Positions 1 to 14,254 of a stretch of DNA of 64,000 nucleotides are shown here, one piece after another (the first letter of the stretch is position 1; each line of letters starts with the position of its first letter). The notes beneath the pieces were generated by a model. The model worked only from the letters and a program-made list of their open reading frames with translations. It had not been told where the DNA came from and ran no database searches. This DNA comes from Roseivivax halotolerans (lineage in GTDB: Bacteria; Pseudomonadota; Alphaproteobacteria; Rhodobacterales; Rhodobacteraceae), in contig NZ_FOXV01000013.1 of NCBI RefSeq assembly GCF_900115815.1, positions 1 through 64,000 on the forward strand. The letters are read 5' to 3'. Position numbers and translations under genes: made by a program.

Positions 1-135
1 GGGTCCGGGATCGATTGGCCGACCCTGAAAGCGCGGCTCGACGCGGCGCTGGTCCCCGAGGCGCAGGCGACAGGCCCCGAGGCGCTGCCCGACTTTCCCG
101 ATCCATTCCCGGCATGGCGGAAGGCTGCGGCATGA
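1..135 (+). CDS. COG0523 (CobW-type) GTPase, C-terminal fragment
   Basis: The first 44 codons are the end of a gene that starts outside the window; its frame stops at the TGA at 133-135. The tail reads LPDFPDPFPAWRKAAA. A D-P-F-P-x-W ending after an acidic linker is, as I recall, typical of the ZigA/ZagA-like zinc-chaperone GTPases of COG0523. The stop codon overlaps the ATG of the next gene (ATGA at 132-135), so the two are translationally coupled. COG0523 GTPase followed by DUF1826 is a known Zur-regulon pairing, which supports the call. Only 44 residues are visible and no GTPase motif can be checked. Confidence 0.6.
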   Translation, partial: GSGIDWPTLKARLDAALVPEAQATGPEALPDFPDPFPAWRKAAA

Positions 136-770
136 CGGTTCAACGGTTTATCGAACCCGCCAGAACCCGTAGCGTGATCAGTACGCCATCACCTCAAGGC
201 ATGCGGCAGGTCCGGGCCGCTGAGGTCGGCGGTGTCATATGGGATCGGGAAACGCTGGCTTCGTTCCAGACTTGGATTGATGGACTGAGCCCGGCAAACC
301 TGCCGCAGACACGGGTCATTTTGCGCCCCGCTGCGACCCGCGACGCGGTGACAGCAGCTTGCGTTACCGCAGGTACGCCAGATGGCCCGGAGCGGCGGCG
401 CCTGATCGATGACGTTTCTGCGCTTGCCAACATGTTCGCGGACATTATGGATGCCCGCTGGCTGCGCCTGCGACTCGACGTCGTCGATGGCAACGCCTGC
501 CGGCGCTTCCATGTGGACCGGACCACTGCGCGACTGATCTGCACCTATCGGGGCACGGGCACGCAATTCGGAGTGGCCCAAAGGGATGGCGCGGACCCCG
601 AAACGATCCAAACGGTCCCGACCGGATCGCCCCTTGTCATGCGCGGCACACTCTGGCCTGTCGAGCCCGATCCGGGGCTGCGCCACCGATCTCCCCCGAT
701 CGAGGGTAGCGGAGAAACCCGCCTCGTTCTCATCCTGGACCCGATCGACGACCCCGATGAGCCCTCATGA
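132..770 (+). CDS. DUF1826 domain-containing protein
   Basis: A 212-residue protein starting at the ATG that overlaps the upstream stop (ATGA); the frame is open further upstream but the coupled ATG is the natural start. The body contains the DUF1826 pattern I recognise: a DDVSALANMF helix, WLRLRLDVVDGNACRRFHVD, and a Cys/His-containing core ending in LVLILDP. Function is unknown. DUF1826 genes commonly sit beside COG0523 GTPases in Zur regulons, which fits the rest of this region. The motif CRRFHVD could contact a metal or cofactor, but this is inference. Its stop overlaps the ATG of the next small gene. Confidence 0.8.
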   Translation: MTVQRFIEPARTRSVISTPSPQGMRQVRAAEVGGVIWDRETLASFQTWIDGLSPANLPQTRVILRPAATRDAVTAACVTAGTPDGPERRRLIDDVSALANMFADIMDARWLRLRLDVVDGNACRRFHVDRTTARLICTYRGTGTQFGVAQRDGADPETIQTVPTGSPLVMRGTLWPVEPDPGLRHRSPPIEGSGETRLVLILDPIDDPDEPS

Positions 771-1114
771 GCCGTAACCTCACGCCACCCCTGCGCCGCC
801 GCCGGCGCGGGGACCCCATGCGCAGCTATTACCGACTGCTCCCGGCGCGCTTCAGACATGCTCGCACAATCCGCCTTGCCTTGTGGTCTCCCGCCTCGTG
901 CCTCGGGATCTGGCGCGAAGCGCGGAAAAAGTGGACGCCGATTTCAGAGATCATCGCGAACCTTGACCGATTGGAACGGGCGGCGATCGAACGTAGCTTT
1001 AGGCTTCAAAAGACGCCAAACTGTAGTGCAAATTGGGACGGAAGGATCAGCAAGAGGTCGATAGAAACCGGTACTTCTCTTCTGTTGAGATGGTCTCCAC
1101 TCGAAAGATCGTAA
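767..1114 (+). CDS. Small Arg-rich protein, DUF6525-like, probably frame-damaged
   Basis: The ATG overlaps the DUF1826 stop (ATGA at 767-770), suggesting a third coupled gene. The N-terminus (NLTPPLRRRRRGDPMRSY) and the later WSPASCLGIWREARK resemble the roughly 95-residue DUF6525 proteins I remember from Rhodobacteraceae. Between these parts the expected LAQSALP is readable only in the +1 frame (861-881), with WSPASC (884 onward) back in the original frame. This suggests two compensating indels (+1 near 857-860, +2 near 882-885). The last 30 residues look like read-through into non-coding DNA. The family assignment is from memory and uncertain. Confidence 0.4.
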   Translation: MSRNLTPPLRRRRRGDPMRSYYRLLPARFRHARTIRLALWSPASCLGIWREARKKWTPISEIIANLDRLERAAIERSFRLQKTPNCSANWDGRISKRSIETGTSLLLRWSPLERS

Positions 1115-1480
1115 GTCACTAAACGAATGCTGCGAAAGGTCGCCGTTTGCCGCTTCTGGAATGTTGAACTGCAGTACCCTCGATGCGTGCCAATGACCTT
1201 CCCCCGCGATTAGGGCCGGTTTGATCTGGAATCTACCGGTTAGGTTTGAGTGTTGAGCTGCAGCGTGGAGACCGCAAGAGCGCTCAAGCGCTGGCGCAGT
1301 GCCTCATGATCCGTTCGAGATCTCTTCGAACATTTGGTTTTCTCGCTTCTGCGCTTGCACAGTTGCTGCCAAAAACACGCTTCGAAGCTGCAGGAAAATC
1401 GCACCTTCGTGCGTTGAGTAGCAGAGCCCATCGGAGCAAGGGACCGCTGGGTCTCAAGAAATCAACGCGAACTGGCTTCG
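1115..1480. other. Intergenic stretch without a recognisable gene
   Basis: About 365 bases between the end of the small Arg-rich frame and the 3' end of the minus-strand gene at 1481. Open frames here are short and look like no family I know. Local AT content is visibly higher than in the flanks. I see no tRNA, strong terminator or obvious repeat. It may be a decayed gene or insertion remnant, but nothing in the sequence proves that. Confidence 0.4.
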
Positions 1481-2080
1481 TCAACATCGCGAAGTGGCGC
1501 CCATACGCTGATTGTCGGCAGCATTTTGATGGCTCGCAATAGCCCCCGTTTCAGACGTTCTCGGTCTAAGCCTCGAAGGGCAGCGACGAGTGATGCAAAC
1601 GATGCGGAGAACGTCGTCTGCATCCTTCAGGTATCCAAAGCTCTTGTCGGTCTTCACGGTCTTACCGGCCGTGTCAGTGAAGAAGAACCATCCCATCCAC
1701 ATGGCGGTGTTACCATCAATTAGGCTGGCGGCTGTTTCGGACCAGGTATGCCGCCATCTCCGGAGGGCGAACCCAGCGTCGAGCGGAAAATCGGGGTCGC
1801 GTCCGACGAAATAGGACAGCGCACCCTTTCTGCTCGTGCGAAAAGTCTTCTCTCCACCGCTCAGCGTCGGCTTGAACAAAACCGGCCCGATGTCGAAGCC
1901 GTAGGTCGAATCGAGCAGATCGCAAGCAATCCGTCGCGCCTCGTCAAATCCGTTTGCCTCGTGAGCCTTCGAGATCGTGACAAGCCCATCGCCCCAAGTC
2001 TCGCGCGCCGCAGCAATTTCATTATCAGTTATGCCCAAGGGTCTATCCTCGTTCACTCTTAGGGGTTTAACACGTGACAC
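1481..2080 (-). pseudogene. NTF2-like small protein with a C-terminal frameshift
   Basis: The frame gives 199 residues. The first 160 (GDGLVTISKAH, DIGPVLFKPT, GALSYFVGRDPDFPLDAGFA, NTAMWMGWFFFTD, KTDKSFGYLKDADDVLRIV) match a family of about 150-170 residues that databases often label phosphoribosyl-AMP cyclohydrolase; I think it is really a SnoaL/NTF2-like fold. After LRIV the family ends in LHHSSLP. That ending, LHHSSLPFEA then stop (1566-1568), is present but in the other frame. One base is missing in a T run near 1596-1600, so the product carries about 40 unrelated residues. It lies 54 bp downstream of thrS and may be the last gene of that operon. A sequencing error is equally possible. 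Confidence 0.65.
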
Positions 2081-2134
2081 ATGATCTGTGTCACTCGGCG
2101 CAACGGTCGCAGCGCATCGTCCGCATACAGGTTG

Positions 2135-4060
2135 TTATGTCTTGTCCGCGCAAGGATGCTGTGCCTCGCGCACGAGGCTGTCGACCGCGTCTTCGATGGC
2201 AAGTGTTCGCGTGTCCTCGGCTCCGTGCCGCCGGATCGTGACCGTCCGGTCTTCGGCTTCCCGGGCGCCGAGCGCGATCTGCACGGGCACCTTCTTCAGG
2301 GCGTGCTCGCGCACCTTGTAGCCGATCTTCTCGTTTCGCAGATCGGTCTCGACGCGCAGCCCATTCGAGCGCAGCGCTCTGGCCACATCGCGGGCCCAGT
2401 CATCCGCCGCACCGGTGACGGTCGCCACCACCGCCTGCACTGGCCCCAGCCAAAGCGGCAGGTGGCCGGCATGGTGTTCGATCAGGATGCCAGTGAACCT
2501 CTCGAGCGAGCCGAAAAGAGCCCGATGCAGCATGACTGGAGGCAGCTTGTCGCACGACGGCGCGACATAGGTTGTCCCGAAGCGTTCGGGCAGATTGAAA
2601 TCGACCTGCAGCGTGCCGCACTGCCAATCCCGCCCGATGGCGTCGCGCAGAACGTATTCGAGCTTCGGGCCGTAGAAGGCGCCTTCACCTTCGAAGATCG
2701 TGTAGGCGTGCCCGGCGGTGTCGAGCGCCGTGCGCAGCGCTTCTTCGGACCGGTCCCAGCTCTCGTCACTTCCGATCCGGTTTTCCGGGCGGGTCGAGAG
2801 CTTGATGCTGACATCCTCGAAGCCGAAGTCGCGGTAGATCGACAGCACGAGATCGTTGACCTTCAGGCACTCTTCGGCGAGTTGCTCGGGCGTGCAGTAG
2901 ATGTGGGCATCGTTCTGCGTGAAGCTGCGCACGCGCAGAAGTCCGTGAAGGGCGCCGGAGGGTTCGTAGCGATGGACCTTTCCGAACTCGGCGAGCTTGA
3001 GGGGCAGATCCCGGTAACTCTTGGTGCCCTGACCGTAAATGAGCATGTGACCGGGGCAGTTCATGGGCTTCAACGCGTAGTCGCGCTCATCCTCGGTCTT
3101 CGCGAGGAACATGTTGGCGCGGTAGTTCTGCCAATGGCCGGACGTCTCCCACAGCGTACGTTCCATGATGTCGGGTGAGTTCACCTCGACGTATCCTGCG
3201 TCTTCCTGACGCGTGCGCATGTAGCCGATCAGCGTCTGGAACAGCCGCCATCCGCGCGGGTGCCAGAAGACCGATCCGGGGGCGACCTCCTCGAAATGGA
3301 ACAGGTCCATCTCGCGCCCCAGCCTGCGGTGATCGCGCTTTTCGGCCTCGGCCATCATGGTCAGGTGGGACTCGAGGGCGGGCTTGTCGGCGAAAGCAAC
3401 ACCGTAGATCCGGCTTAGCATCCGGTTTTTCGCGTCGCCCCGCCAATAGGCCCCGGCGACATGGGTCAGCTTGAAGGCCGTGCCGGCATCGGCCGTGCTG
3501 CGCATGTGCGGGCCGCGACAGAGGTCGAGCCAGTCGCCCTGCCGGTAGATGGTGACAGGCTCACCGGCCGGGATAGCGTCGAGCAGGCCCAGTTTATAGG
3601 TTTCGCCCGCAGTCTCGAAATGCGCGCGGACCTCCGCGCGACGCCATGCCTCGCGCGCGAAGGGACGTCGCGCGGCGACTATCTCGCGCATTTTTTTTTC
3701 GATGACGGGGAGGTCTTCCGGCGTGAACGGCGTGTCGCGGTCGAAATCGTAGTAGAAGCCGTGTTCGATTGCCGGGCCGATCGCTGTCCGCGTCTCGGGC
3801 CAGAGCGTCTGAACCGCCTCGGCCAGCACATGAGCCAGGTCGTGGCGGATCAGCTCCAGAGCGCGGGGATCGTCGCGGGTGACAAGCTCTACCGCCGCAC
3901 CGTCGGGCAAGGCGGCAGAGAGGTCGGTGATCTTCCCATCGACAAGCGCGGCCACGGTCCGTTTAGCGAGGCTCGGGCTGATGGCGGCGGCGAGGTCAGC
4001 GGCGGTACTGGCTGGAGCCAGCGCTCGACTGGCCCCATCTGGCAGGCGGACATGGATCAT
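2135..4060 (-). CDS. thrS: Threonine--tRNA ligase
   Basis: A 641-residue class II synthetase of normal length. An N-terminal TGS domain (residues 1-62) is followed by the editing domain with HDLAH at 73-77 and CRGPH at 181-185, the catalytic core and the anticodon-binding domain. The three expected zinc ligands are present: Cys335 in MNCPGH, His386 in NDAHIYC and His512 in VMLHRA, so the enzyme looks zinc-dependent. The frame is open about 110 codons upstream, but the ATG at 4060 overlaps the yidD stop (ATGA) and begins with the usual MIHVRLPDG. It is the fourth gene of an overlapping minus-strand operon with a Zur box at its head, so it may be a Zur-regulated copy; whether another thrS exists cannot be seen. 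Confidence 0.97.
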
Positions 4061-4301
4061 CGCGAGGTCTTTCGGTTCGTGACAGGGGGCACCGGGTCGT
4101 ATCCGCTTCGGCCCCACGGATTGCAGCGGACAAGGCGCAGAAGTGTCAGCCAGAGGCCACGCAGGGGCCCATGGGTTTCCAGTGCCTCGATGGCGTAGAC
4201 GGAGCAGCTCGGCTGGAACCGGCAGGAATGGCCGAGCCACGGCGACAGGATCAGCCGGTAGGCCCGGATAGGCAGAATCAAGAGCCAGATGACGCTCGCC
4301 C

Positions 4302-4305
<4 letters not shown>
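4057..4305 (-). CDS. yidD: Membrane protein insertion efficiency factor YidD
   Basis: An 82-residue protein with the YidD signature: a hydrophobic N-terminus ([19 protein letters not shown]) then [18 protein letters not shown] and [17 protein letters not shown]. The conserved Cys cluster is intact. YidD helps YidC-dependent insertion of inner-membrane proteins. The start is the ATG overlapping the cysS stop (ATGA at 4302-4305), and its stop overlaps the thrS start (4057-4060). It therefore lies between two tRNA synthetases instead of in the usual rnpA-yidD-yidC context; this could be the only copy or an extra one. Confidence 0.93.
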
Positions 4306-5642
<1,337 letters not shown>

Positions 5643-5645
5643 TGT

Positions 5646-6785
5646 TCAGAATGGCATCTCGGTCGTGTCGGCCATCATGCCGTCCGTGGCCGCATCATCG
5701 TCCGTCCAGCGCATGCGCAGAGTATCAAGGCTTGCTTTCAGACCCTTCGCATCGGTGTCGCGCGCGATGACCACGACCCGGCTTGTCGTGTCGGTCCCGG
5801 ACCAGGAGCGGACCTGAACGGGCGCATCGAAGATGTGCTGCACGCCGTGGAAGACGAAGGGGAGATCCAGGCCTTCCACGTGCAGGATCCCCTTGATCCG
5901 GAGAATGTCCGGCCCCTTGAGCGCGATCAGCGTATCGAGCCAAAAATCGAAGATGCTCGCGGGGATCGGCTCCTCGACCTCGATCGATGCAGACGCGATG
6001 CGATGGTCGTGATGCGCGTGGCCTCCGGTCTGTTGCAAGGGCAGCGGGGCAGGCTTGGCGCCTGTCGGGGTGAGGCCCGACAGACCTGAAAGCGGATCGG
6101 GCTTTGACGGCTCAACACCGAGCCACTCCGAGATATCGTCCGTGGTCACGCTGGGACGCAGCGCCGAGAGGCCGAACAGCGCGCCGGGGGCAATACGTCC
6201 ACGCTCCGAATGGATGCGCCGGGCGGTCGCGTTGATGCCTTCGAGCCTCGCTTCGAACTGCGCCACCTCGCGCGGGGTGACGAGATCGGTTTTCGTCACC
6301 ACCATCAGGTCGGCCATTGCGACCTGGTGAACCGCCTCGAACTGAGTGTCGAGCGTGCGTGGCCCCAGGGCTGCGTCGGCAAGCGTCACCACGCCGTCCA
6401 TTCGATAGAAAGGAGCGGTCAGATCGTCCACGACGAGCGTGTGCAGGATCGGACCGGGATCCGCGATTCCGGTGGTTTCGATGACCACGCGGTCGAACGC
6501 CAGGTCACCGCGTTTCCGCTTGGCCATCAGTGACCGCATCGTGTTGGCGAGATCGCTCCGGATTGAGCAGCAAATACACCCCGATTGCATCAGCACGGTT
6601 TCTTCGGTGGCCTCCTCGATCAGATCATGGTCGAGCCCGACATCCCCGAATTCATTCATGATGACGGCAATGCGACCGGCCTCGGGGTCGCGTATCAGGT
6701 TGTTCAGGAGGGTTGTCTTGCCTGCTCCGAGAAATCCGGTGAGCAACGTCACCGGAACCCGGTCATCTGTGATGTCGGTCGCCAT
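5646..6785 (-). CDS. CobW/COG0523-family GTPase, probable zinc chaperone
   Basis: A 379-residue G3E P-loop GTPase. Walker A GFLGAGKTT is at 17-25, the metal-binding CxCC-type motif as CICC at 70-73, ETTG at 103-106 and the NKxD equivalent TKTD at 164-167. The His-rich stretch GGHAHHDH at 254-261 before the C-terminal CobW domain suits metal delivery. It is the first gene of the operon continuing into cysS, yidD and thrS. Its start lies 40 bp from the Zur box at 6825-6842, which it shares with the divergent hisI. Proteins of this type load zinc into client enzymes under zinc limitation; the clients here are unknown. Confidence 0.93.
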   Translation of the reverse strand: MATDITDDRVPVTLLTGFLGAGKTTLLNNLIRDPEAGRIAVIMNEFGDVGLDHDLIEEATEETVLMQSGCICCSIRSDLANTMRSLMAKRKRGDLAFDRVVIETTGIADPGPILHTLVVDDLTAPFYRMDGVVTLADAALGPRTLDTQFEAVHQVAMADLMVVTKTDLVTPREVAQFEARLEGINATARRIHSERGRIAPGALFGLSALRPSVTTDDISEWLGVEPSKPDPLSGLSGLTPTGAKPAPLPLQQTGGHAHHDHRIASASIEVEEPIPASIFDFWLDTLIALKGPDILRIKGILHVEGLDLPFVFHGVQHIFDAPVQVRSWSGTDTTSRVVVIARDTDAKGLKASLDTLRMRWTDDDAATDGMMADTTEMPF

Positions 6786-6824
6786 GCGTGCCTCTTTACA
6801 ATCCTGGTTAACTTCGACATGTGC

Positions 6825-6842
6825 GCTACGTTATTACATATC
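6825..6842. promoter_or_regulatory. Zur box between the COG0523 operon and hisI
   Basis: An 18-bp near-palindrome reading GCTACGTTATTACATATC. It matches 15 of 18 positions of the alphaproteobacterial Zur consensus as I remember it (GATATGTTATAACATATC). It lies in the 75-bp gap between two divergent starts (6785 on minus, 6861 on plus), the ideal position for repressing both arms. A zur gene is encoded 3 kb away. The site was found by eye; no matrix score was computed. Confidence 0.8.
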
Positions 6843-6860
6843 AAAATACAAGGAGCGACG

Positions 6861-7334
6861 ATGGGAAAACTTGAGTTCGCGTCACGCACCTCAGTCGAGC
6901 AGATCGAGGAGGGCTACGAGTTGGTGCCTAAGTTCGGCCCGGACGGCCTCATGCCGTGCATCACCTCCGACGCAAGCACCGGGGAGGTCCTCATGCTCGG
7001 ATGGATGAACACTGAGGCGCTCCGGCTCACGATCGAGACTGGCGAAGCACACTACTTCAGCCGCGCAAGGCAAGTGCTATGGCGCAAGGGCGCGACCTCC
7101 GGCCTTGTGCAGAACATTGTCGAAGCGCGGATCGATGATGATCAGGACGCGATCTGGCTGCGAGTCGAGGTCGCAGGGTCCGGCGCTTCGTGCCATGTGG
7201 GCTACCGGTCCTGTTTCTATCGCGCTGTACCGCTTGGGGCGAAGGCCGGGCAGCCGCTTGTGTATCTGGAAGGCGACAAGACGTTCGATCCCGGTGAGGT
7301 CTATGGCGATGTGCCAAACCCGACCCAGATCTGA
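6861..7334 (+). CDS. hisI: Phosphoribosyl-AMP cyclohydrolase paralog with altered zinc site
   Basis: A 157-residue HisI (third step of histidine synthesis, PR-AMP to ProFAR). The start ATG has an upstream AAGGAG and lies 18 bp from the Zur box. The canonical metal motif D-C-D-x-D is here DDDQD (residues 92-96): the cysteine that is a zinc ligand in characterised HisI is Asp93. The other two ligands, Cys111 and Cys118 in SCHVGYRSCFY, are kept, with two extra residues in the spacing. Zur-regulated HisI2 paralogs with changed ligands are known from other bacteria, so this is likely the low-zinc version. It overlaps the next gene by 26 bp. Confidence 0.9.
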   Translation: MGKLEFASRTSVEQIEEGYELVPKFGPDGLMPCITSDASTGEVLMLGWMNTEALRLTIETGEAHYFSRARQVLWRKGATSGLVQNIVEARIDDDQDAIWLRVEVAGSGASCHVGYRSCFYRAVPLGAKAGQPLVYLEGDKTFDPGEVYGDVPNPTQI

Positions 7335-8067
7335 TCTGCACTGGATGCGGCGGGCCCTGCGATTGGCGGGCCAAAAGCGCGGTTATGTCTGGCCGAATCC
7401 GCCGGTGGGATGCGTAATTGTCAGAGATAATCGTGTCGTCGCCGAGGCCGCGACCCACGCGGGCGGGCGGCCGCATGCGGAACGAAAGGCTCTGGATCAG
7501 GCCGGAGTAGAAGCCAGAGGTGCCACGCTTTTCGTCACACTCGAACCATGTTGCCATTGGGGCGTGACGCCACCTTGCGCCGACGCGATTGTCGACGCCG
7601 GCGTGGCCCGGGTCGTCTGCGCCGTCGGAGACCCAGACCCGCGAGTGAACGGCGGTGGATTCGAGAGGCTGCGCGCTGCCGGCGTCGACGTCGAGGTCGG
7701 CCTCTGCGCAGATGAGGCTGCGCGCGTGCTGTCGGGCTTTTTCCACCGCGTGCGGCATGGCGTGCCGGACGTCGTCGTGGTCGAACGGACCCTGGACCGG
7801 ATCCCGACCTGCGCTGATGCGCTGCTCGTATCATCCACCGGCGGGATGCGTCTCGCCACACGCAGATCAGGGACGATGGTGATCACTCCGGTTCCCGAGG
7901 ACAGGACAGACGCCGTATTGATATGGATGGGGGAGCTTGGTCTCACGACCGTGGCAGTGCTGCGAGGCGATCCCGCTTCTCACTTCATCGTACGCAGAGG
8001 TTCCAGCTCTCTCGCCGACCGATCCGAGGCTGCACCACGCGGGGCCGCAACCAGAGCTGTCTCATGA
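7309..8067 (+). CDS. RibD-type pyrimidine deaminase with degenerate reductase half
   Basis: A 252-residue protein. Residues 10-145 are a RibD deaminase domain: MRRALRLAGQKRGYVWPNPPVG, zinc-site HAE at 56-58 and EPCCHWGVTPPC at 79-90 with ligands His56, Cys81 and Cys90. The deaminase converts the diaminopyrimidine in riboflavin synthesis. The reductase half should add about 210 residues; only about 105 remain. ERTLDRIPT vaguely echoes the usual SLDGRIAT, but the NADPH-binding core is not recognisable. It overlaps the hisI end, so they are coupled and share the Zur box. It is either a deaminase-only variant or a decaying copy. An ATG at 7345 is an alternative start. Confidence 0.75.
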   Translation: MCQTRPRSDLHWMRRALRLAGQKRGYVWPNPPVGCVIVRDNRVVAEAATHAGGRPHAERKALDQAGVEARGATLFVTLEPCCHWGVTPPCADAIVDAGVARVVCAVGDPDPRVNGGGFERLRAAGVDVEVGLCADEAARVLSGFFHRVRHGVPDVVVVERTLDRIPTCADALLVSSTGGMRLATRRSGTMVITPVPEDRTDAVLIWMGELGLTTVAVLRGDPASHFIVRRGSSSLADRSEAAPRGAATRAVS

Positions 8068-8086
8068 GAACGACGCGGCGAGGTGA

Positions 8087-8347
8087 GTGGGAGTGCTGAA
8101 CAAGTCCGTTCGTGACGCGTCCAGAACCTTCTGGCACGTGCAGCGCGTCAAGCGCATGATCAGGGGGCACCTCGGACGTGGCGCACAATGTCTTGTCTCG
8201 GTGCAACAGGCATACTGCAGCGACCCTGGCTGCGAAGGATTCTTGACCGAAATCCGGATCGTGCAGCTTGGATTTCAAGAGATGCGCACGACTCTACATA
8301 AGCCGGTCGCGGACGTCTCCGAGGGCGACATCGCCGCGATCTTTTAG
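8087..8347 (+). CDS. Small conserved Cys protein in the Zur-linked operon, function unknown
   Basis: An 86-residue protein starting at GTG 8087 or GTG 8093, 19 bp after ribD and in the same direction. A basic N-terminal helix (NKSVRDASRTFWHVQRVKRM) is followed by QCLVSVQQAYCSDPGCEGF and an acidic tail. The three cysteines resemble, from memory only, small proteins with a C-x-EPGCPP-x-ET motif that accompany some COG0523 GTPases. I cannot name the family. The composition is not that of random sequence and the position points to a role in zinc limitation. It converges on znuB with a 35-bp gap. Confidence 0.6.
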   Translation: MGVLNKSVRDASRTFWHVQRVKRMIRGHLGRGAQCLVSVQQAYCSDPGCEGFLTEIRIVQLGFQEMRTTLHKPVADVSEGDIAAIF

Positions 8348-8381
8348 GTCGGCAGACCAGGTCCCGCCTGCGCGCCGAGCT

Positions 8382-9176
8382 TCAACCAGGCTGCCGTATC
8401 CGGGATGCGATGTTCGAAAGGATGAACAGCAGCGCGGTCACGCAGACGATCGTTGGACCGGTCGGCGTGTCGAACTCATAGGATGCGCGCAGCCCTATCC
8501 ACGCCGAAGTCATTCCGACGAGGGCTGCCATGATTCCCATGCGCTCGGGCGTGACGGCAAAGGGCCGTACAGTGGCCGCTGGAATGATCAGCAGCGCGGT
8601 AATAAGCAACACACCCACCACTTTGATCGCCACGGCGACTACCACCGCCAGAGCCAGTGTCAGGACGAGCTGCTCGCGTTTCGGATCGATGCCGGCGGCA
8701 AGGGCGAGTCCGTCATCCAAAGTTGCCGTCAGAAGCGCGTTCCAGCGCCAGCCAATCAACGCAAGGACCAGCGCCGCGCCGCCCCAGATCACCGCAAGAT
8801 CGCTGCGCGACACCGCCAGAATGTCGCCGAAGAGATAGGCCATGAGATCGATACGCACACCTTGGATAAAGGTCACTCCCACAAGCCCGAAGGCGAGCGC
8901 GGAATGCGCCATGACGCCAAGTAGCGTGTCCATCGCGTAGCCGCGTCCCGAGATCACAGAAACTACCATGGCCATGAAGAGCGCTATGAACAATGTCCCG
9001 ACAAAGACCGGCAGAGACGCCGCCAGCGACAGTGCCACGCCAAGGATTGCGGCATGGGCGGTGGCGTCTCCGAAATAGGCCATCCTTCGCCATACTACGA
9101 AACAGCCAAGCGGCGCGGCGGCGAGCCCCGTGCCGATCCCGGCAAGCGCGGCGCGGGTCAAGAAGTCATCAAGCAT
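8382..9176 (-). CDS. znuB: Zinc ABC transporter permease ZnuB
   Basis: A 264-residue ABC-3 family inner-membrane permease with about eight hydrophobic segments. Family features include WRRMAYFGDATAHAAILGVA near the N-terminus, the GRGYAMDTLLGVMAHSALA region and a terminal pair of helices. It partners ZnuC and ZnuA for high-affinity zinc import. The ATG at 9176 overlaps the znuC stop by one base, so zur-znuC-znuB form one minus-strand transcript. Confidence 0.95.
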   Translation of the reverse strand: MLDDFLTRAALAGIGTGLAAAPLGCFVVWRRMAYFGDATAHAAILGVALSLAASLPVFVGTLFIALFMAMVVSVISGRGYAMDTLLGVMAHSALAFGLVGVTFIQGVRIDLMAYLFGDILAVSRSDLAVIWGGAALVLALIGWRWNALLTATLDDGLALAAGIDPKREQLVLTLALAVVVAVAIKVVGVLLITALLIIPAATVRPFAVTPERMGIMAALVGMTSAWIGLRASYEFDTPTGPTIVCVTALLFILSNIASRIRQPG

Positions 9177-9928
9177 TATTCTGCGGCGTCCTGCACGTGA
9201 TCTTGGGAATGGCGATGGTCGTGATTGTGGCGGTAGAGCGCGAATGCCCCGCGCGTGCCCTCGCCGAAGAGGCGGCGGTAGTCCGGCGCATTAGCGACGA
9301 CCTCCGGCGTGCCTGCGCAGCAGACATGACCGTTAAGGCAGATCACTCGATCGGAGGCACTCATTACGACGTGCAGATCGTGGCTGATCATCAGCACACC
9401 GCAGCCCGTTTCTTCCCGGACCTCGTGGATGCGGCGGTAAAAGGCGGCCGCTCCGGGCTGGTCGAGACCTGCCGCCGCCTCGTCGAGGATCAGCAGGTCC
9501 GGCTCTTCGAGGATCGCACGTGCCAGAAGCGCCCGCTGAAACTGCCCACCCGAGAGCGCCGCCATCTGCCGCTTGCCTATCTCGGGCACGCCCGCGCGCT
9601 CCAAAGCTTCGCGGGCGCGAGACGCCGGGATTCGATGCGGGAGGGACAGAAACCGCTCGACATTCATCGGCAGAGTCGGATCGAGAACCAGCCGCTGCGG
9701 CACATAGCCAATCTGCAGGCCGGGCTTGCGCTCGATCCGCCCCGCCGAATGCTTGACCCCGCCGAGAATGGCCTTGATCAGCGTCGACTTACCCGAACCA
9801 TTGGGACCGACGATGGTCACGATCTCGCCGGGCGCGACGTCCAGGTCCACATCTCGGAGTACGGCCGCCTCGCCGTAGCGCACGGTCAGGTCGTGAACGG
9901 ACACGAGCGGCGCAGCATCGCGCATCAT
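9176..9928 (-). CDS. znuC: Zinc ABC transporter ATP-binding protein ZnuC
   Basis: A 250-residue ABC ATPase. Walker A GPNGSGKST, Q-loop in IGYVPQRL, signature LSGGQFQRA, Walker B LLILDEAAAGLD and switch HDLHVV are all intact. The C-terminus is His-rich (YRHNHDHRHSQDH), as in other ZnuC proteins. The frame runs further upstream, but the ATG at 9928 overlaps the zur stop (ATGA) and is taken as start; a second ATG follows at once. It energises ZnuB in the zinc importer. Confidence 0.95.
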   Translation of the reverse strand: MMRDAAPLVSVHDLTVRYGEAAVLRDVDLDVAPGEIVTIVGPNGSGKSTLIKAILGGVKHSAGRIERKPGLQIGYVPQRLVLDPTLPMNVERFLSLPHRIPASRAREALERAGVPEIGKRQMAALSGGQFQRALLARAILEEPDLLILDEAAAGLDQPGAAAFYRRIHEVREETGCGVLMISHDLHVVMSASDRVICLNGHVCCAGTPEVVANAPDYRRLFGEGTRGAFALYRHNHDHRHSQDHVQDAAE

Positions 9929-10416
9929 GCCACCCTCGCGCATTTGGGACAGATACCTTCGGCCTCGCGAACCATCAGCTCCACGGCGAAACCGGCGCGC
10001 TTTGCAAGACGACTTATCTCGCTCTTTCTGGAATCTGACTGAACTTCCGATACGGAGTTGCAAAGGCGGCAAATCAGGAAGACGGGGGCATGCGACGCCT
10101 CCAGATGCGAGCAGGCGACAAACGCATTGAGCCGTTCAATTCGGTGTGCGAAGCCTTGGTTGATCAGGAATTCAAGCGCGCGATAGGCCACGGGGGGTTG
10201 CGAGCCGAGACCCTCCGCGCGGAGCACGTCGAGGATGTCGTACGCGCCCATTGCCTTGTGCTCGGATAGCAGGATTTCGAGCACGCGCTTTCGAGTTCTG
10301 GTCAATTGCAATCCGCGCTCGGTGCAGATCTCCTCCGCTGTAGCCACACCACTTTCGACGCACGTTTCATGGTCATGTGCCTCAAACGCATAATGGCTCA
10401 CTGCTATCTCCCGCAC
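9925..10416 (-). CDS. zur: Zinc uptake regulator, Fur family
   Basis: A 163-residue Fur-family repressor. The winged-helix domain (LQLTRTRKRVLEILLSEHKAMGAYDILDVL, then VAYRALEFLINQGFAHRI) is followed by a dimerisation domain with CRLC at 116-119 and CPKC at 156-159, the structural zinc cysteines. Its place as first gene before znuC-znuB, and opposite znuA, identifies it as Zur and not Fur or PerR. An N-terminal extension (AHDHETC) could also bind metal. The likely targets here are the sites at 6825 and 10433. Confidence 0.94.
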   Translation of the reverse strand: MREIAVSHYAFEAHDHETCVESGVATAEEICTERGLQLTRTRKRVLEILLSEHKAMGAYDILDVLRAEGLGSQPPVAYRALEFLINQGFAHRIERLNAFVACSHLEASHAPVFLICRLCNSVSEVQSDSRKSEISRLAKRAGFAVELMVREAEGICPKCARVA

Positions 10417-10432
10417 AGATTGGGCTTGATAC

Positions 10433-10450
10433 GATATATCATAACGCTTA
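10433..10450. promoter_or_regulatory. Candidate Zur box between zur and znuA
   Basis: GATATATCATAACGCTTA matches about 12 of 18 positions of the Zur consensus; its left half is strong and the right half weak. It lies in the 70-bp gap between the divergent zur (start 10416) and znuA (start 10487). Position and a second AT-rich repeat just downstream (GTTACTTAATTAC) support Zur control of both transcripts, but the match is much poorer than at 6825. Confidence 0.5.
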
Positions 10451-10486
10451 TGCCCATAGCGTGTTACTTAATTACAGGAGTTTCGG

Positions 10487-11548
10487 ATGTCCATCAGTTT
10501 TGGAAAATCTCTGGCGGGCAGCGTGTTCGCCATCACAGCGGCCACGTCCGTCTCAGCGGACGTGCCGCAGGTCGCCACCGACATCGCGCCGGTCCATGGC
10601 CTCGTGGCTCGCGTCATGGAGGGTCTTGGTGAGCCTGACCTTGTAGTCCAGCAGGGGGCGTCTCCGCACGGCTATTCAATGCGTCCTTCTGAGGCTCGTG
10701 CGCTGGAAGCCGCGAACGCAGTTTTCTGGATCGGTCCTGAGCTTGCGCCCTGGCTCGAAGATTCTATCGGGACGCTGGCCCCGGACGCGCATGTGGTCGA
10801 GCTCCTCGACGTCGAGGGTATCACCACGCTCGAGTATCGCGAAGGCGCGACCTTCGAGTCTCACGATCACGGCGACCATGATCACGAAGGTGAAGATCAT
10901 GCAGGTCATGACCACTCCGAAGACGCGGCGCACGAAAAGCACGACCACGCAGAAGAGGCATCGCACGAGGGCGAAGAGCATGCCGAGCACGATCATGGCG
11001 GCCACGATCATGCCGGGCACAGTCACGATGGTCTCGACCCGCACGCCTGGCTCGATCCCGAGAATGGCAAGGTTTGGCTCGACGTGATCGCCGAGGAGCT
11101 CGCCGAGCTCGACCCTGAAAACGCGGACACCTACCGCGAGAATGCCGCCGCAGGGCAGGAAGAGATCGACGTTGCGATAGGCGAAGTGGAAGAGATGTTG
11201 TCGTCCACCGGCGAGATCAGCTTCGTGGTGTTCCACGATGCATATCAATATTTCGAGACCCGTTTCGACATTTCGGCCGCCGGAGCGATCTCGCTTGGCG
11301 ATGCATCGGATCCCAGCCCCGCGCGAGTCGAGGAAGTGCGCAATACAGTTACAGAACTCGGCGTCACCTGTGTCTTCTCCGAGCCGCAATTCAACCAGAA
11401 CCTCGTGCAGACAGTGACCGAGGGAACCGACGCGCAAACCACAGTGATCGACCCGCTCGGCTTCGGTCTCGATACCGGACCCGATTTTTATCCGGCGCTT
11501 ATGCGGTCTCTTGCTGAGAGCATCGCCAGCTGCGCCTCATCGTCCTGA
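10487..11548 (+). CDS. znuA: Periplasmic zinc-binding protein ZnuA
   Basis: A 353-residue cluster A-I substrate-binding protein. A signal peptide occupies about residues 1-24 (cut after SVSA). The first metal-site histidine is His61 (GASPHGYSM). A very acidic, His-rich loop fills about residues 126-182 with some twenty His, the hallmark of zinc-specific ZnuA. It is followed by DGLDPHAWLDP and FVVFHDAYQYF, which supply further ligands. It captures zinc in the periplasm for ZnuBC. An AGGAG lies 8 bp before the ATG. It is divergent from zur. Confidence 0.96.
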   Translation: MSISFGKSLAGSVFAITAATSVSADVPQVATDIAPVHGLVARVMEGLGEPDLVVQQGASPHGYSMRPSEARALEAANAVFWIGPELAPWLEDSIGTLAPDAHVVELLDVEGITTLEYREGATFESHDHGDHDHEGEDHAGHDHSEDAAHEKHDHAEEASHEGEEHAEHDHGGHDHAGHSHDGLDPHAWLDPENGKVWLDVIAEELAELDPENADTYRENAAAGQEEIDVAIGEVEEMLSSTGEISFVVFHDAYQYFETRFDISAAGAISLGDASDPSPARVEEVRNTVTELGVTCVFSEPQFNQNLVQTVTEGTDAQTTVIDPLGFGLDTGPDFYPALMRSLAESIASCASSS

Positions 11549-12160: not shown

Positions 12161-13354
12161 TCATGCGGCCTGCTCCCGTGGCGGTGCGCGCGACATTGGT
12201 TTCTGGCCGCGGCGGAAGATCTCGATGATGCGCATTGGGCCGCCGCAGCATGGGCACGGTTCGCGCAGGGTGAGAGGTGCGGTCTCCGTTGGGTACTGCG
12301 CTTCCCGTTCGGGCGTACGCTGCCCGAGCAGGTCGCGGATGCGGGCGATGGCGGCCTTGCGTGTCGCGCTGGCCAGCAGGCCGTAGTGCCGGATGCGGTG
12401 GAAGCCGTCAGGGAGGACATGCATCAGGAAGCGGCGGATGAACTCCTGCGTGGACAGGCGCATGACCTTCTGCCGGTCGCCGGATTCGACGCGGTAATCC
12501 TTCCATCGAAACGCGACAGTCTGGGTGTCGGCGCTGATCAGGCGATGGTTCGAGATCGCCACGCGGTGGGTGTATCGGCTGAGGTAGGTGAGTACGGCTT
12601 CAGGCCCGCCAAAGGGCGGTTTGGCGTAGACGACCCATTTGGATTTGCGGAACGGCGCGAGCCAGGCGGCAAAGGCGTCCGTCTGCGTTAGACATTCCTG
12701 GTCGCCGTAGAAGGCCAGTTCCCCAGCGGCATGAAGCGCCAGCAGCCCGTCGAGGAACAGGCGCCGAAACAGGCGCGACAGCACCCGCACGTGCAGGAAA
12801 AACCCGGGCCTGCAGGCGACCCAGCGGGTGCCGTCCGGCGACAGGCCTCCGCCCGGCACGATCATGTGGATGTGGGGGTGATGCGTCAGCGCCGATCCCC
12901 AGGTGTGCAGCACGCTGGTCATGCCGATCCGGGCGCCAAGACGCTTGGGATCGGCCGCGATTGTTATCACCGTTTCCGCGGACGCCCGGAACAGAAGCCC
13001 ATATACCGCTCGCTTGTTCCAATAGGCGATCTGGGCGATCTCGGCCGGCAGGGTGAAGACGAGGTGGAAGTATTCCACGGGCAGCAGATCCTCGGCGCGT
13101 GCCGCCATCCAGTCGCGTGCGGCCGGTCCCTGACACTTCGGGCAATGCCTGTTTTTGCAGGAGTTGTAGCCGATGTGGCGGTGGCCGCACTTGGCACAGC
13201 CGGCCACATGCCCGCCGAGCGCCTCGGTCCGACAGGCCTCGATCGCCGACATGACCTTGAGCTGCGAGAGGCTGACATGCCCGGCATTGGCCTGCCGCCA
13301 CGCAGGACCATGGGCGCGAAAGACGTCAGCGATCTCCAGCTTGGGCCGGGACAC
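12161..13354 (-). CDS. IS91-family Y2 transposase
   Basis: A 397-residue rolling-circle transposase. A Cys-rich N-terminus (CAKCGHRHIGYNSCKNRHCPKCQG) forms the zinc-binding domain. The HUH-type metal site is in ALTHHPHIHMIVPGGG and the paired tyrosines are in YLSRYTHRVAIS. Length and motifs are normal, so the gene looks intact. It follows the recombinase by 12 bp on the same strand. It moves the element by one-ended rolling-circle transposition and can carry adjacent DNA. Confidence 0.93.
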   Translation of the reverse strand: MSRPKLEIADVFRAHGPAWRQANAGHVSLSQLKVMSAIEACRTEALGGHVAGCAKCGHRHIGYNSCKNRHCPKCQGPAARDWMAARAEDLLPVEYFHLVFTLPAEIAQIAYWNKRAVYGLLFRASAETVITIAADPKRLGARIGMTSVLHTWGSALTHHPHIHMIVPGGGLSPDGTRWVACRPGFFLHVRVLSRLFRRLFLDGLLALHAAGELAFYGDQECLTQTDAFAAWLAPFRKSKWVVYAKPPFGGPEAVLTYLSRYTHRVAISNHRLISADTQTVAFRWKDYRVESGDRQKVMRLSTQEFIRRFLMHVLPDGFHRIRHYGLLASATRKAAIARIRDLLGQRTPEREAQYPTETAPLTLREPCPCCGGPMRIIEIFRRGQKPMSRAPPREQAA

Positions 13355-13366
13355 CCCGGCGCCCGG

Positions 13367-14254
13367 TCACTCCAGACTTCGCTTCACGGCATGATCCTGC
13401 AGCTTCTCCAGCATCTCGTACGGGCTGACCGTGTCGCGGATCGTCTTGGTGGCGACATGGGTGTATTGCGCGGTGGTCGTCAGCTTGGCATGGCCGAGCA
13501 GGACCTGGATCACGCGCACGTCCGTGTTGGCCTCCAGCAGGTGGGTCGCAAAACTGTGCCTGAGCGTGTGCAATGTCGCCGGCTTGCTGATCCCGGCCAT
13601 GTGCTTAGCCGAGGTGAACGCCCGGTTCAGCTGCCGTGGCGAGATCGGATTGATCTTCGGTTTGCCCGGGAAAAGCCAGCCCTCCGGGCGTGCCTCACGC
13701 CACCAGTCACGCAGAAGGTTCAGCAAGCCGGGTGACAGCATCACCTTGCGATCCTTCCGCCCTTTGCCCTGTTCTACGTGGATGAGCATTCGATCGCTGT
13801 CGATGTCGCCAAGCTTGAGGTTGCAAACCTCGGAAGCACGCAGCCCGGCGCCATAGGAAATGCTGAGCGCCGCGCGGTACTTGAGACCCGGTCCCGGTGC
13901 CGCCATCAGGATGTCGGAGACCTCCTCGACGCTGAACACCACGGGCAGCTTCCGCGGCTGGGTGCGGAATTGCATGTATCGCTTCATGTCCTCGCGCCCG
14001 CAGGTCATCCCGAAAAAGAACCGCAGCGCGACGATGCGCACGTTGAACGTCGACGGCGTGACCCCGCTATCCGTCATGTGCAACTGATAGGCGCGCAGAT
14101 CCTCCGGTGTGGCCATGTCGGGCGATCGTCCGAGAAACGCTGCGAAGTCCTTGATTGCTCTGATGTGGGCCTTCTGCGCTTTCTCGCCCATGCCGCGAAT
14201 GCGCATGTCTTCCATCATCCGCGCGCGCAGCGGCGAAATCTTCTCCTTGGTCAT
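13367..14254 (-). CDS. Tyrosine-type recombinase associated with the IS91 element
   Basis: A 295-residue phage-integrase family protein with a SAM-like N-terminal domain and a catalytic domain. Active-site residues are visible: Arg in GAGLRASEV, the HxxR in TLHTLRHSF, His in LLGHAKL and Tyr in TTTAQYTHV. Recombinases of this XerD-like type often precede IS91 transposases. Its exact contribution to transposition is unclear. It starts just after a GGAGG and looks intact. Confidence 0.9.
   Translation of the reverse strand: MTKEKISPLRARMMEDMRIRGMGEKAQKAHIRAIKDFAAFLGRSPDMATPEDLRAYQLHMTDSGVTPSTFNVRIVALRFFFGMTCGREDMKRYMQFRTQPRKLPVVFSVEEVSDILMAAPGPGLKYRAALSISYGAGLRASEVCNLKLGDIDSDRMLIHVEQGKGRKDRKVMLSPGLLNLLRDWWREARPEGWLFPGKPKINPISPRQLNRAFTSAKHMAGISKPATLHTLRHSFATHLLEANTDVRVIQVLLGHAKLTTTAQYTHVATKTIRDTVSPYEMLEKLQDHAVKRSLE

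What the first reader, a model, noticed from the sequence alone, without database searches (positions are those of the whole stretch)
1..11548. Compact Zur island: regulator, importer, two COG0523 GTPases and possible low-zinc copies of CysRS, ThrRS, HisI and RibD
In 11.5 kb the window has zur, znuABC, two COG0523 GTPase genes, DUF1826, and a divergent pair of operons on one strong Zur box that contain cysS-yidD-thrS and hisI-ribD-86aa. COG0523 genes with copies of zinc enzymes in Zur regulons are established in other bacteria, but finding cysS, yidD and thrS overlapping in one transcript with a COG0523 GTPase is unusual. It implies that translation enzymes are re-supplied, or loaded by the GTPase, during zinc famine.
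Basis: partly seen in the sequence, partly recalled or inferred. Interest (0 to 1): 0.8.

Follow-up and report, generated by a model that had tools for sequence, protein, structure and literature searches.

The report
Zinc-famine island of spare zinc enzymes
An alphaproteobacterium of the Rhodobacter/Roseobacter kind carries an island, apparently switched by zinc, with second copies of several zinc enzymes, two of which charge transfer RNAs; it is a richer variant of a known zinc-starvation strategy, and one unexpected member (YidD) may point to an unrecognised zinc protein.

Summary
The island has zur, znuABC, DUF1826, one intact COG0523 GTPase, the last 44 residues of another cut by the contig start, and divergent operons COG0523-cysS-yidD-thrS and hisI-ribD'-86aa. 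thrS, cysS, hisI, ribD and yidD each have another, 47-62% identical copy in the genome. A Zur-box matrix trained on 17 other loci finds two strong sites in 64 kb: between the operons and between zur and znuA. None lies beside the other copies. Sixteen other alphaproteobacterial loci share the divergent COG0523/hisI core; one (Salibaculum) has the full set.

ThrRS2 and CysRS2 are not local duplicates: both fall outside the Rhodobacterales housekeeping clades. PS1 and Rhodobiaceae have a cluster thrS-yidD-iscU-cysS <> folE-hisI of the same layout. CysRS2, ThrRS2 and RibD' keep their zinc ligands, so they are zinc-using spares. HisI2 has Asp for one of three zinc cysteines. RibD' keeps only the zinc half of RibD.

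The principle (Zur, COG0523 and paralogs of CysRS, ThrRS and HisI) was published in 2009. New here: the alphaproteobacterial kit, its likely model, half-RibD and YidD. Repression by Zur, response to zinc and loading by the GTPase are untested.

The parts
1..135 (+). C-terminal 44 residues of a COG0523-like GTPase, cut by the contig start
   Evidence: 42-64% to C-termini of COG0523 genes in 5 loci; no Pfam/NCBIfam hit (7, 8)
132..770 (+). DUF1826 protein
   Evidence: PF08856 1.4e-54
2135..4060 (-). thrS2, second threonyl-tRNA synthetase, zinc ligands kept
   Evidence: TIGR00418 667.6 bits; aligned to 1QF6; other copy 57%
4057..4305 (-). yidD2, second YidD, three conserved cysteines kept; ATGA overlaps with cysS2 and thrS2
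   Evidence: PF01809 4e-29
4302..5642 (-). cysS2, second cysteinyl-tRNA synthetase, zinc ligands kept
   Evidence: TIGR00435 463.8 bits; aligned to 1LI5; other copy 51%
5646..6785 (-). COG0523 (G3E) GTPase with CxCC motif (GCICCS), first gene of the cysS2-yidD2-thrS2 operon
   Evidence: PF02492 + PF07683; motif
6826..6844 (.). Zur-type box in the 75-bp divergent promoter
   Evidence: matrix score 17.0 bits; a similar palindrome in the 18 upstream regions printed
6861..7334 (+). hisI2, PR-AMP cyclohydrolase of the Asp-for-Cys (DDD) subfamily
   Evidence: PF01502 3.7e-29
7309..8067 (+). ribD', deaminase (zinc) half of RibD with a short unmatched tail; alternative ATG at 7345
   Evidence: TIGR00326 matches model 1-144 of 343 only
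8087..8347 (+). 86-aa protein with conserved CxDPxC motif
   Evidence: no Pfam/NCBIfam hit; 14-row alignment with invariant C44 and C49
8382..9176 (-). znuB, zinc ABC permease
   Evidence: PF00950 2.9e-66; best NCBIfam ZnuB 245.4, cut-off 284
9176..9928 (-). znuC, zinc ABC ATPase
   Evidence: PF00005; best NCBIfam ZnuC 267.9, cut-off 306
9925..10416 (-). zur, Fur-family zinc regulator
   Evidence: PF01475 1.5e-08; best NCBIfam Zur 126.9, cut-off 167
10426..10447 (.). Zur-type box(es) between zur and znuA
   Evidence: matrix scores 18.7 and 16.5 bits
10487..11548 (+). znuA, zinc-binding protein with His-rich loop
   Evidence: PF01297 5.5e-62; best NCBIfam ZnuA 204.4, cut-off 268

Best explanation
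This is a Zur-controlled zinc-famine kit acquired from other alphaproteobacteria. With enough zinc, Zur sits on the box at 6826-6844 and silences both divergent operons. In famine Zur lets go. One transcript then makes the COG0523 GTPase with CysRS2, YidD2 and ThrRS2 (tightly coupled, ATGA overlaps). The other makes HisI2, a deaminase-only RibD and an 86-aa CxDPxC protein. ZnuABC imports zinc. The spares keep translation (Cys-tRNA, Thr-tRNA), histidine and riboflavin synthesis running when the housekeeping zinc copies fail. Most of the spares still use zinc, so the kit must supply or prioritise zinc for them; the COG0523 GTPase is the obvious candidate loader. Shown by sequence: gene content, second copies, the boxes, ligand retention, and that ThrRS2 and CysRS2 fall outside the Rhodobacterales housekeeping clades. 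Inferred: repression by Zur, co-transcription, activity in famine, and loading by the GTPase.
For: Second copies of all five genes. The boxes are the only two strong sites in 64 kb and are absent from the 5 other-copy loci held with 1.5 kb on each side; no site of 13 bits or more in 260 kb of relatives' thrS, yidD and cysS loci. A site of 13 bits or more lies within 1 kb of the hisI2 operon in 19 of 23 genomes with two or more HisI and 0 of 24 with one; leaving out the 13 loci used for training, 6 of 10 against 0 of 24, p = 1.6e-4 (threshold and distance were set after seeing the data). An Acetobacter plasmid not used in training has thrS-zur-x <> folE-hisI-COG0523 (the last scores above the ZigA cut-off) with a 35.6-bit box. 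ThrRS2 (11 rows, 100/100) is sister to ThrRS of S. meliloti and Anderseniella (98/96), apart from 10 Rhodobacterales housekeeping rows. CysRS2 is across a 100/100 branch from 22 rows that include the own housekeeping copy. RibD' keeps only the zinc-dependent half.
Against: No expression or binding data were available. The window box is the weakest of those compared. In Paracoccus denitrificans RNA-seq the passages seen name COG0523, znu and azt; 'tRNA synthetase' and 'HisI' occur 0 times in the text (PMC5387054); whether that species has the island was not tested. ThrRS2 reads in two pieces in 3 of the 9 core loci that have it (L043, L045, L117) and RibD' is broken in 3 of 11 relatives checked: assembly error or decay. 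Four loci with box and hisI2 lack COG0523 in the stretch held (L042, L044, L049, L054). The CysRS of the Paracoccus sp. MA plasmid (L019) does not group with the window's, and the ThrRS of one Rhizobiales-type cluster (L151, Afifella) does not group with the island's sister. The island lies beside an IS91-type transposase and a phage-type integrase, so some genes may be passengers.
Confidence: 0.72

Rival explanations
1. Dosage only: the spares are ordinary zinc enzymes whose extra expression compensates for loss of active housekeeping enzyme; the GTPase serves other clients.
For: Zinc ligands are kept in CysRS2, ThrRS2 and RibD'. Haas 2009 offers the same alternative (PMC2770081, passages). 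Anabaena ThrRS T2 needs zinc and does not bind it more tightly (PMC4787780, passages). Four loci have box and hisI2 without COG0523 in the stretch held.
Against: COG0523 is the first gene of the window's operon and tightly packed with cysS2; in 17 of the 22 loci with a box just upstream of hisI2 it shares that promoter region. Making more zinc protein in famine is wasteful without targeting (inference).
Confidence: 0.35
2. Metal switch: the spares work with another metal (Co, Fe, Mn) or with fewer zinc ions, HisI2 through its Asp-for-Cys site.
For: HisI2 has Asp in place of the DCD cysteine, a catalytic zinc ligand in the plant enzyme (PMC8102479, passages), in the island copies whose motif could be read. 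DDD-type HisI is the only HisI found in 24 of 47 genomes, so it is presumably functional.
Against: The other three spares keep their zinc ligands. Only zinc supported Anabaena T2 among the metals tested there.
Confidence: 0.25
3. Passenger synteny: yidD2 (and perhaps thrS2) is there only because the donor locus had iscU-yidD-thrS; no zinc role for YidD.
For: Apparent housekeeping iscU-yidD-thrS in Anderseniella and Afifella, and with two genes between yidD and thrS in S. meliloti; thrS-yidD-iscU-cysS in PS1/Rhodobiaceae. ThrRS2 is sister to S. meliloti/Anderseniella ThrRS, and an island+Rhizobiales YidD clade is not rejected (p-AU 0.44). YidD2 is in only 4 of 17 core loci, one with a lost cysteine.
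Against: YidD2 is intact in the window, L043 and L045 and in the window overlaps both neighbours; a YidD also sits with hisI in a mercury-resistance island.
Confidence: 0.5

Closest known systems
Zur-regulated COG0523 clusters with zinc-enzyme paralogs (Haas et al. 2009, PMC2770081)
   Same: COG0523, zur, znu, DUF1826 (figure legend) and paralogs of HisI, CysRS and ThrRS under predicted Zur control; [quoted passage not shown]
   Different: That passage covers gamma- and betaproteobacteria; 'RibD' and 'YidD' occur 0 times in the text. Here HisI2 has Asp for one zinc cysteine, and RibD', YidD and the 86-aa protein are added.
Anabaena PCC 7120 thrS2 operon with COG0523 all4722 (PMC4787780)
   Same: Zur-repressed second ThrRS that uses zinc, co-transcribed with COG0523, needed for Thr-tRNA charging in zinc famine (passages).
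   Different: No CysRS, HisI or YidD in the passages seen. The editing state of the window ThrRS2 was not analysed beyond presence of the tRNA_SAD domain.
Pseudomonas protegens Zur regulon with hisI2, yciC, folE2, pyrC2 (review PMC6103462)
   Same: Zur-linked HisI2 with COG0523 genes (passages).
   Different: The table row seen lists no tRNA synthetase, RibD or YidD for that species.
Cluster thrS-yidD-iscU-cysS <> folE-hisI of PS1 (L094) and Rhodobiaceae (L113-L115)
   Same: Same genes and same divergent layout.
   Different: The only HisI and only ThrRS found in those genomes (ThrRS in pieces in L115), no site of 13 bits or more in the stretches, no COG0523 hit beside it, and folE and iscU present.

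Membership tests
Zur-regulated zinc-paralog cluster (Haas 2009 kind) | paralogs of zinc enzymes, with another copy elsewhere | tested here: met
Zur-regulated zinc-paralog cluster (Haas 2009 kind) | Zur-type box in the shared promoter, same type as at zur/znuA | tested here: met
Zur-regulated zinc-paralog cluster (Haas 2009 kind) | COG0523 gene in the cluster | tested here: met
Zur-regulated zinc-paralog cluster (Haas 2009 kind) | repression by Zur and induction in zinc famine | not testable with these tools
   needs RNA-seq/EMSA
COG0523 metallochaperone GTPase | cobW nucleotide-binding domain, CobW_C domain, CxCC metal motif | tested here: met
   (GCICCS)
ZigA zinc metallochaperone (NF038288) | score above curated cut-off | tested here: not met
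   121.9 bits against 600
PRK11537 GTPase (NF008578) | score above curated cut-off | tested here: not met
   194.4 against 361
ThrRS / CysRS | family score above cut-off and zinc ligands at E. coli positions | tested here: met
   ligand numbers (C334/H385/H511; C28/C209/H234/E238) recalled, mapped on 1QF6 and 1LI5
PR-AMP cyclohydrolase HisI | three zinc cysteines (Cys126/142/149 in the plant enzyme) | tested here: not met
   two of three; the first is Asp. NF000768 score 143.9 is above its cut-off of 126
bifunctional RibD | deaminase and reductase domains | tested here: not met
   only model positions 1-144 of 343 match; 8 intact relatives are equally short, 210-259 aa

The most novel reading that the evidence does not exclude
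YidD is an unrecognised zinc (or soft-metal thiol) protein, its metal held by three near-invariant cysteines, and it fails early in zinc famine; this is why a spare yidD is kept in a Zur operon between two zinc-dependent tRNA synthetases, why a yidD travels with hisI inside a mercury-resistance island, and why yidD sits among zinc-enzyme genes in other alphaproteobacteria.
Probability: 0.18. Interest if true: 0.72.

Novelty: new variant of a known kind. Interest (0 to 1): 0.5.

Why it matters
It extends the Zur-paralog strategy to a coupled pair of tRNA synthetases in the Rhodobacter/Roseobacter group. It also shows a likely model for the kit: a housekeeping cluster of unrelated zinc enzymes (folE, hisI, cysS, thrS) in other alphaproteobacteria. 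The half-length RibD, which keeps just the zinc domain, is a natural control arguing that the kit is selected for zinc dependence. Because the spares still carry zinc sites, the island is a compact system for the open question of whether COG0523 GTPases load particular clients. YidD in the kit makes a zinc role for that protein directly testable.

Tried and rejected

2. 'Recent local duplication': rejected for ThrRS2 and CysRS2 by trees. The YidD tree is too short (74 columns) to decide.

3. 'HisI2 lost a zinc ligand as a famine adaptation': weakened. DDD-type HisI is the only HisI found in 24 of 47 genomes (many are draft or metagenome genomes of unstated completeness), so the change is a subfamily trait. 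The 80 loci were found partly with a pattern that contains RIDDD, so the 84 of 89 DDD count says nothing on prevalence. Copies first found through other genes (L017, L018, L019, L022, L030) are all DDD. The second HisI of most of the 23 two-copy genomes was not read; of the second or housekeeping-type copies looked at, L007 (own), L023, L150 and L151 are DCD.

4. 'YidD duplicates are common': 17 of 244 genomes of the window's order gave two hits, but only G000 and G145 have two strong ones; the other 15 second hits score 22.9-37.3 bits, 14 of them over the cut-off. One of G145's two strong copies lies in the same kind of island. cysS2 in 390 genomes (388 with a match, a capped list of places): the best non-self hits are 57-59% and not set apart.

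5. 'YidD generally keeps zinc company': of 58 plasmid records with a YidD match I read the context of 11: four rnpA type, three with no zinc neighbour, two of the mer lineage, one S. meliloti cluster, one Anoxybacillus COG0523 neighbour. Not a general rule.

7. Genome-wide pattern GTTATNNNATAAC with one mismatch: 14 places against 9 for the reversed control, so the simple pattern alone is weak evidence; by the matrix four of the 14 score 17 or more (C29, C36 and the two window sites) and one on C37 scores 14.3 (not followed).

8. Literature: yidD+Zur+zinc, hisI+yidD, yidD+conserved cysteine, Zur+ribD+COG0523 (15 of 83 papers listed), Zur+Alphaproteobacteria+cysteinyl-tRNA synthetase+zinc (none) and Zur regulon+cysS/thrS/hisI/ribD: in the listings I saw none that puts RibD or YidD in a Zur regulon. 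Only open-licence papers are held. A Burkholderia cenocepacia zinc-starvation paper was searched (PMC10563805, passages): no cysteinyl, hisI or tRNA synthetase.
Full report
What is there. The window begins at the first base of contig C38 of a 3.77-Mb, 45-contig, 99.8% complete genome. Of its 10 plasmid DNA relatives, 7 are Rhodobacterales. The leftward operon COG0523-cysS-yidD-thrS is very tight: 3 bp between COG0523 and cysS, and ATGA overlaps between cysS/yidD and yidD/thrS. The rightward operon is hisI-ribD'-86 aa. A 75-bp gap separates the two. The second COG0523 gene is only a 44-residue C-terminus cut by the contig end. Contigs C43 and C36 each end in the N-terminus of another COG0523 gene with a Zur-type box upstream (17.3 and 21.4 bits); which one, if either, joins C38 was not resolved. 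The divergent ORF on C43 has the zinc chaperone AztD as its best NCBIfam model, 341.5 bits against a cut-off of 400.

Spare copies. thrS, cysS, hisI, ribD and yidD each have one other clear copy in the genome, at 57, 51, 49, 47 and 62% identity (a further weak thrS hit at 23% is probably another synthetase). The other yidD sits in the usual rpmH-rnpA-yidD order. A second zur-znuA pair (best models Zur and ZnuA, both below cut-off) lies on C29 with a 28.5-bit box, so the island also duplicates the regulator and at least part of the importer.

Zur box. I printed the region upstream of hisI2 from the window and 17 other loci; by eye each has a GTTATnnnATAAC-like palindrome. A 19-bp matrix trained on the 17, without the window, scores 18.7 at 10426 (zur/znuA) and 17.0 at 6826 (COG0523/hisI2); the next separate site in 64 kb scores 5.2, and five Markov-simulated windows reach at most 5.6. 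None of the own other-copy loci of thrS, cysS, hisI, ribD and yidD reaches 1 bit within the 1.5 kb held on each side. Across 260 kb of relatives' thrS, yidD and cysS loci no site reaches 13 bits. In the 47 genomes a site of at least 13 bits lies within 1 kb of the hisI2 operon in 19 of 23 with two or more HisI genes (misses L061, L082, L099, L110) and in 0 of 24 with one. Leaving out the 13 training loci: 6 of 10 against 0 of 24, Fisher p = 1.6e-4. Threshold and distance were chosen after the scan. An Acetobacter pasteurianus plasmid, not used in training, has thrS-zur-x <> folE-hisI-COG0523 (the COG0523 scores 612.9 against the ZigA cut-off of 600) with a 35.6-bit site in the divergent gap.

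Conservation. Counting the window, 17 loci have COG0523 divergent from hisI2 with a gap of 76-109 bp between matches (L030 and L045 are the same place; 14 are Rhodobacterales by title, the window by inference, L039 is an Anderseniella and L051 a Rhodospirillaceae metagenome genome). thrS2 is in 9 (in L041 it lies 4 kb away), the 86-aa gene in 11, ribD' or a remnant in 6, yidD2 in 4 (window, L041, L043, L045), cysS2 in 4 (full in the window and L043; pieces in L039 and L053). The whole string occurs in 2 of 17, the window and Salibaculum halophilum (L043, whose thrS2 reads in two pieces). A further four loci (L042, L044, L049, L054) have box and hisI2 but no COG0523 in the stretch held, and L050 has cysS2 in its place with COG0523 elsewhere. 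Core loci also lie on plasmids of Phaeobacter and Tritonibacter (unannotated, read through); a Thioclava plasmid has thrS2 and hisI2 with a box before thrS2 but in another layout.

Origin. ThrRS tree (43 rows): 11 ThrRS2 rows (9 core loci plus L017 and L050) form one clade (100/100) whose sister is ThrRS of S. meliloti and Anderseniella (98/96); 10 Rhodobacterales housekeeping rows (two of them the same own gene) form another clade (100/100). Afifella (L151), also with yidD-thrS, groups instead with PS1/Rhodobiaceae (93/80) on a long branch. CysRS tree (45 rows): window, L043 and L050 group (100/99); together with rows from Rhodospirillales, PS1, Rhodobiaceae, other Zur-linked loci, two genomes labelled Marinimicrobia and one Xanthomonas plasmid they lie across a 100/100 branch from 22 rows that include the own housekeeping copy. 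The CysRS of the Paracoccus sp. MA plasmid (L019) does not join the window's group. In PS1 and Rhodobiaceae thrS-yidD-iscU-cysS <> folE-hisI form one cluster with a single HisI and a single ThrRS (in pieces in L115) and no box. In Anderseniella the order is hisI-folE <> iscU-yidD-thrS, in Afifella thrS-yidD-iscU <> folE-hisI, in S. meliloti the same set with two genes before thrS. L057, L059, L075 and L098 combine zur and a COG0523 gene with folE and/or hisI, with a box in the gap; L057, L059 and L075 have at least two ThrRS. The simplest reading is that a clustered set of zinc enzymes was copied, put under Zur and spread sideways; the direction of events is inference.

Ligands. ThrRS2 and CysRS2 keep the zinc ligands (E. 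coli residue numbers recalled). In the motif check the island rows passed except L043 ThrRS, whose hit is only part of the gene; two other ThrRS rows (L110, L155) and ten CysRS rows outside the island group failed one loose pattern each and were not examined further. RibD' keeps the HAE and PC...C zinc motif but lacks the reductase; the same short form is intact in 8 of 11 relatives checked and broken in L017, L039 and L042. The reductase does not need zinc (recalled), so the spare keeps only what famine would disable. HisI2 has D-D-D where the plant enzyme and the DCD copies have D-C-D; that cysteine is a ligand of the catalytic zinc in the plant enzyme, and the paper, citing D'Ordine et al., calls the metal ligands universally conserved (PMC8102479, passages). 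Readable island copies are DDD, but so is the only HisI of many genomes, so the change is a subfamily trait.

YidD. Of 43 YidD rows, 42 keep three cysteines (the script's strict pattern counted 41; L176 has SC for RC); the exception is the island copy of L041, which has other odd changes. Besides the islands, YidD sits in mer-hisI-yidD-sufE on Pseudomonas plasmids (two regions read; 8 records at 99% or more, so one lineage), and beside a COG0523 and a zinc-binding-protein gene on an Anoxybacillus plasmid, where an exact Bacillus-type box lies after yidD, not before it. Four other plasmid contexts read were the ordinary rnpA type and three had no zinc neighbour. This is suggestive, not proof; passenger synteny is the stronger rival.

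Known and new. Haas et al. 2009 already list HisI, CysRS and ThrRS paralogs with COG0523 and Zur and say that their zinc ligands are kept (PMC2770081, passages). Anabaena has a Zur-repressed ThrRS2 with a COG0523 partner whose interaction could not be shown (PMC4787780, passages). The finding is therefore a new variant: the alphaproteobacterial kit, its housekeeping model, half-RibD, YidD and the 86-aa partner.

Noticed in passing
L025:5477-6699 and L133:3477-4699 (Pseudomonas plasmids): A mercury-resistance (mer) region carries hisI-yidD-sufE; 8 plasmid records share it at 99% identity or more, one lineage. HisI in L025 is the ordinary DCD type.
   Followed up: partly
L094:4605-10462, L113, L114, L115: Unrelated zinc enzymes (ThrRS, CysRS, FolE, HisI) cluster with yidD and an IscU/NifU-like gene as apparently single-copy housekeeping genes.
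   Followed up: partly
window 8087-8347 and relatives (alignment A2), L041:617-829, L118:18836-19102: Small CxDPxC protein family often beside COG0523 genes; the window member has no Pfam or NCBIfam hit; predicted helix-three strands-helix.
   Followed up: partly
G000 C43 (L035:1-1437) and C36 (L036:1-160): Two more COG0523 genes cut at contig ends, each with a Zur-type box upstream; the ORF divergent on C43 has zinc chaperone AztD as best model (below cut-off).
   Followed up: partly
G000 C29:185553 (L119): Second zur-znuA pair with a stronger Zur box than the window's.
   Followed up: yes
G000 C37:68181 (L130): A further site of 14.3 bits by the Zur matrix; neighbours not read.
   Followed up: no
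HisI loci L060-L116: Large HisI subfamily with Asp in place of a zinc cysteine described as universally conserved; the only HisI found in 24 of 47 genomes searched.
   Followed up: partly
window 12161-14254: IS91-type transposase and phage-type integrase next to the island, suggesting mobility; the contig further on looks like ordinary chromosome (ORF starts read by eye).
   Followed up: partly
G000 C38:89241-90781: A DUF1007 gene followed by an ORF of NicO-like look (recalled), as beside azt genes in L019, about 80 kb from the island.
   Followed up: no
15 Rhodobacterales genomes: A divergent YidD-like second ORF (23-37 bits) of unknown role recurs.
   Followed up: no
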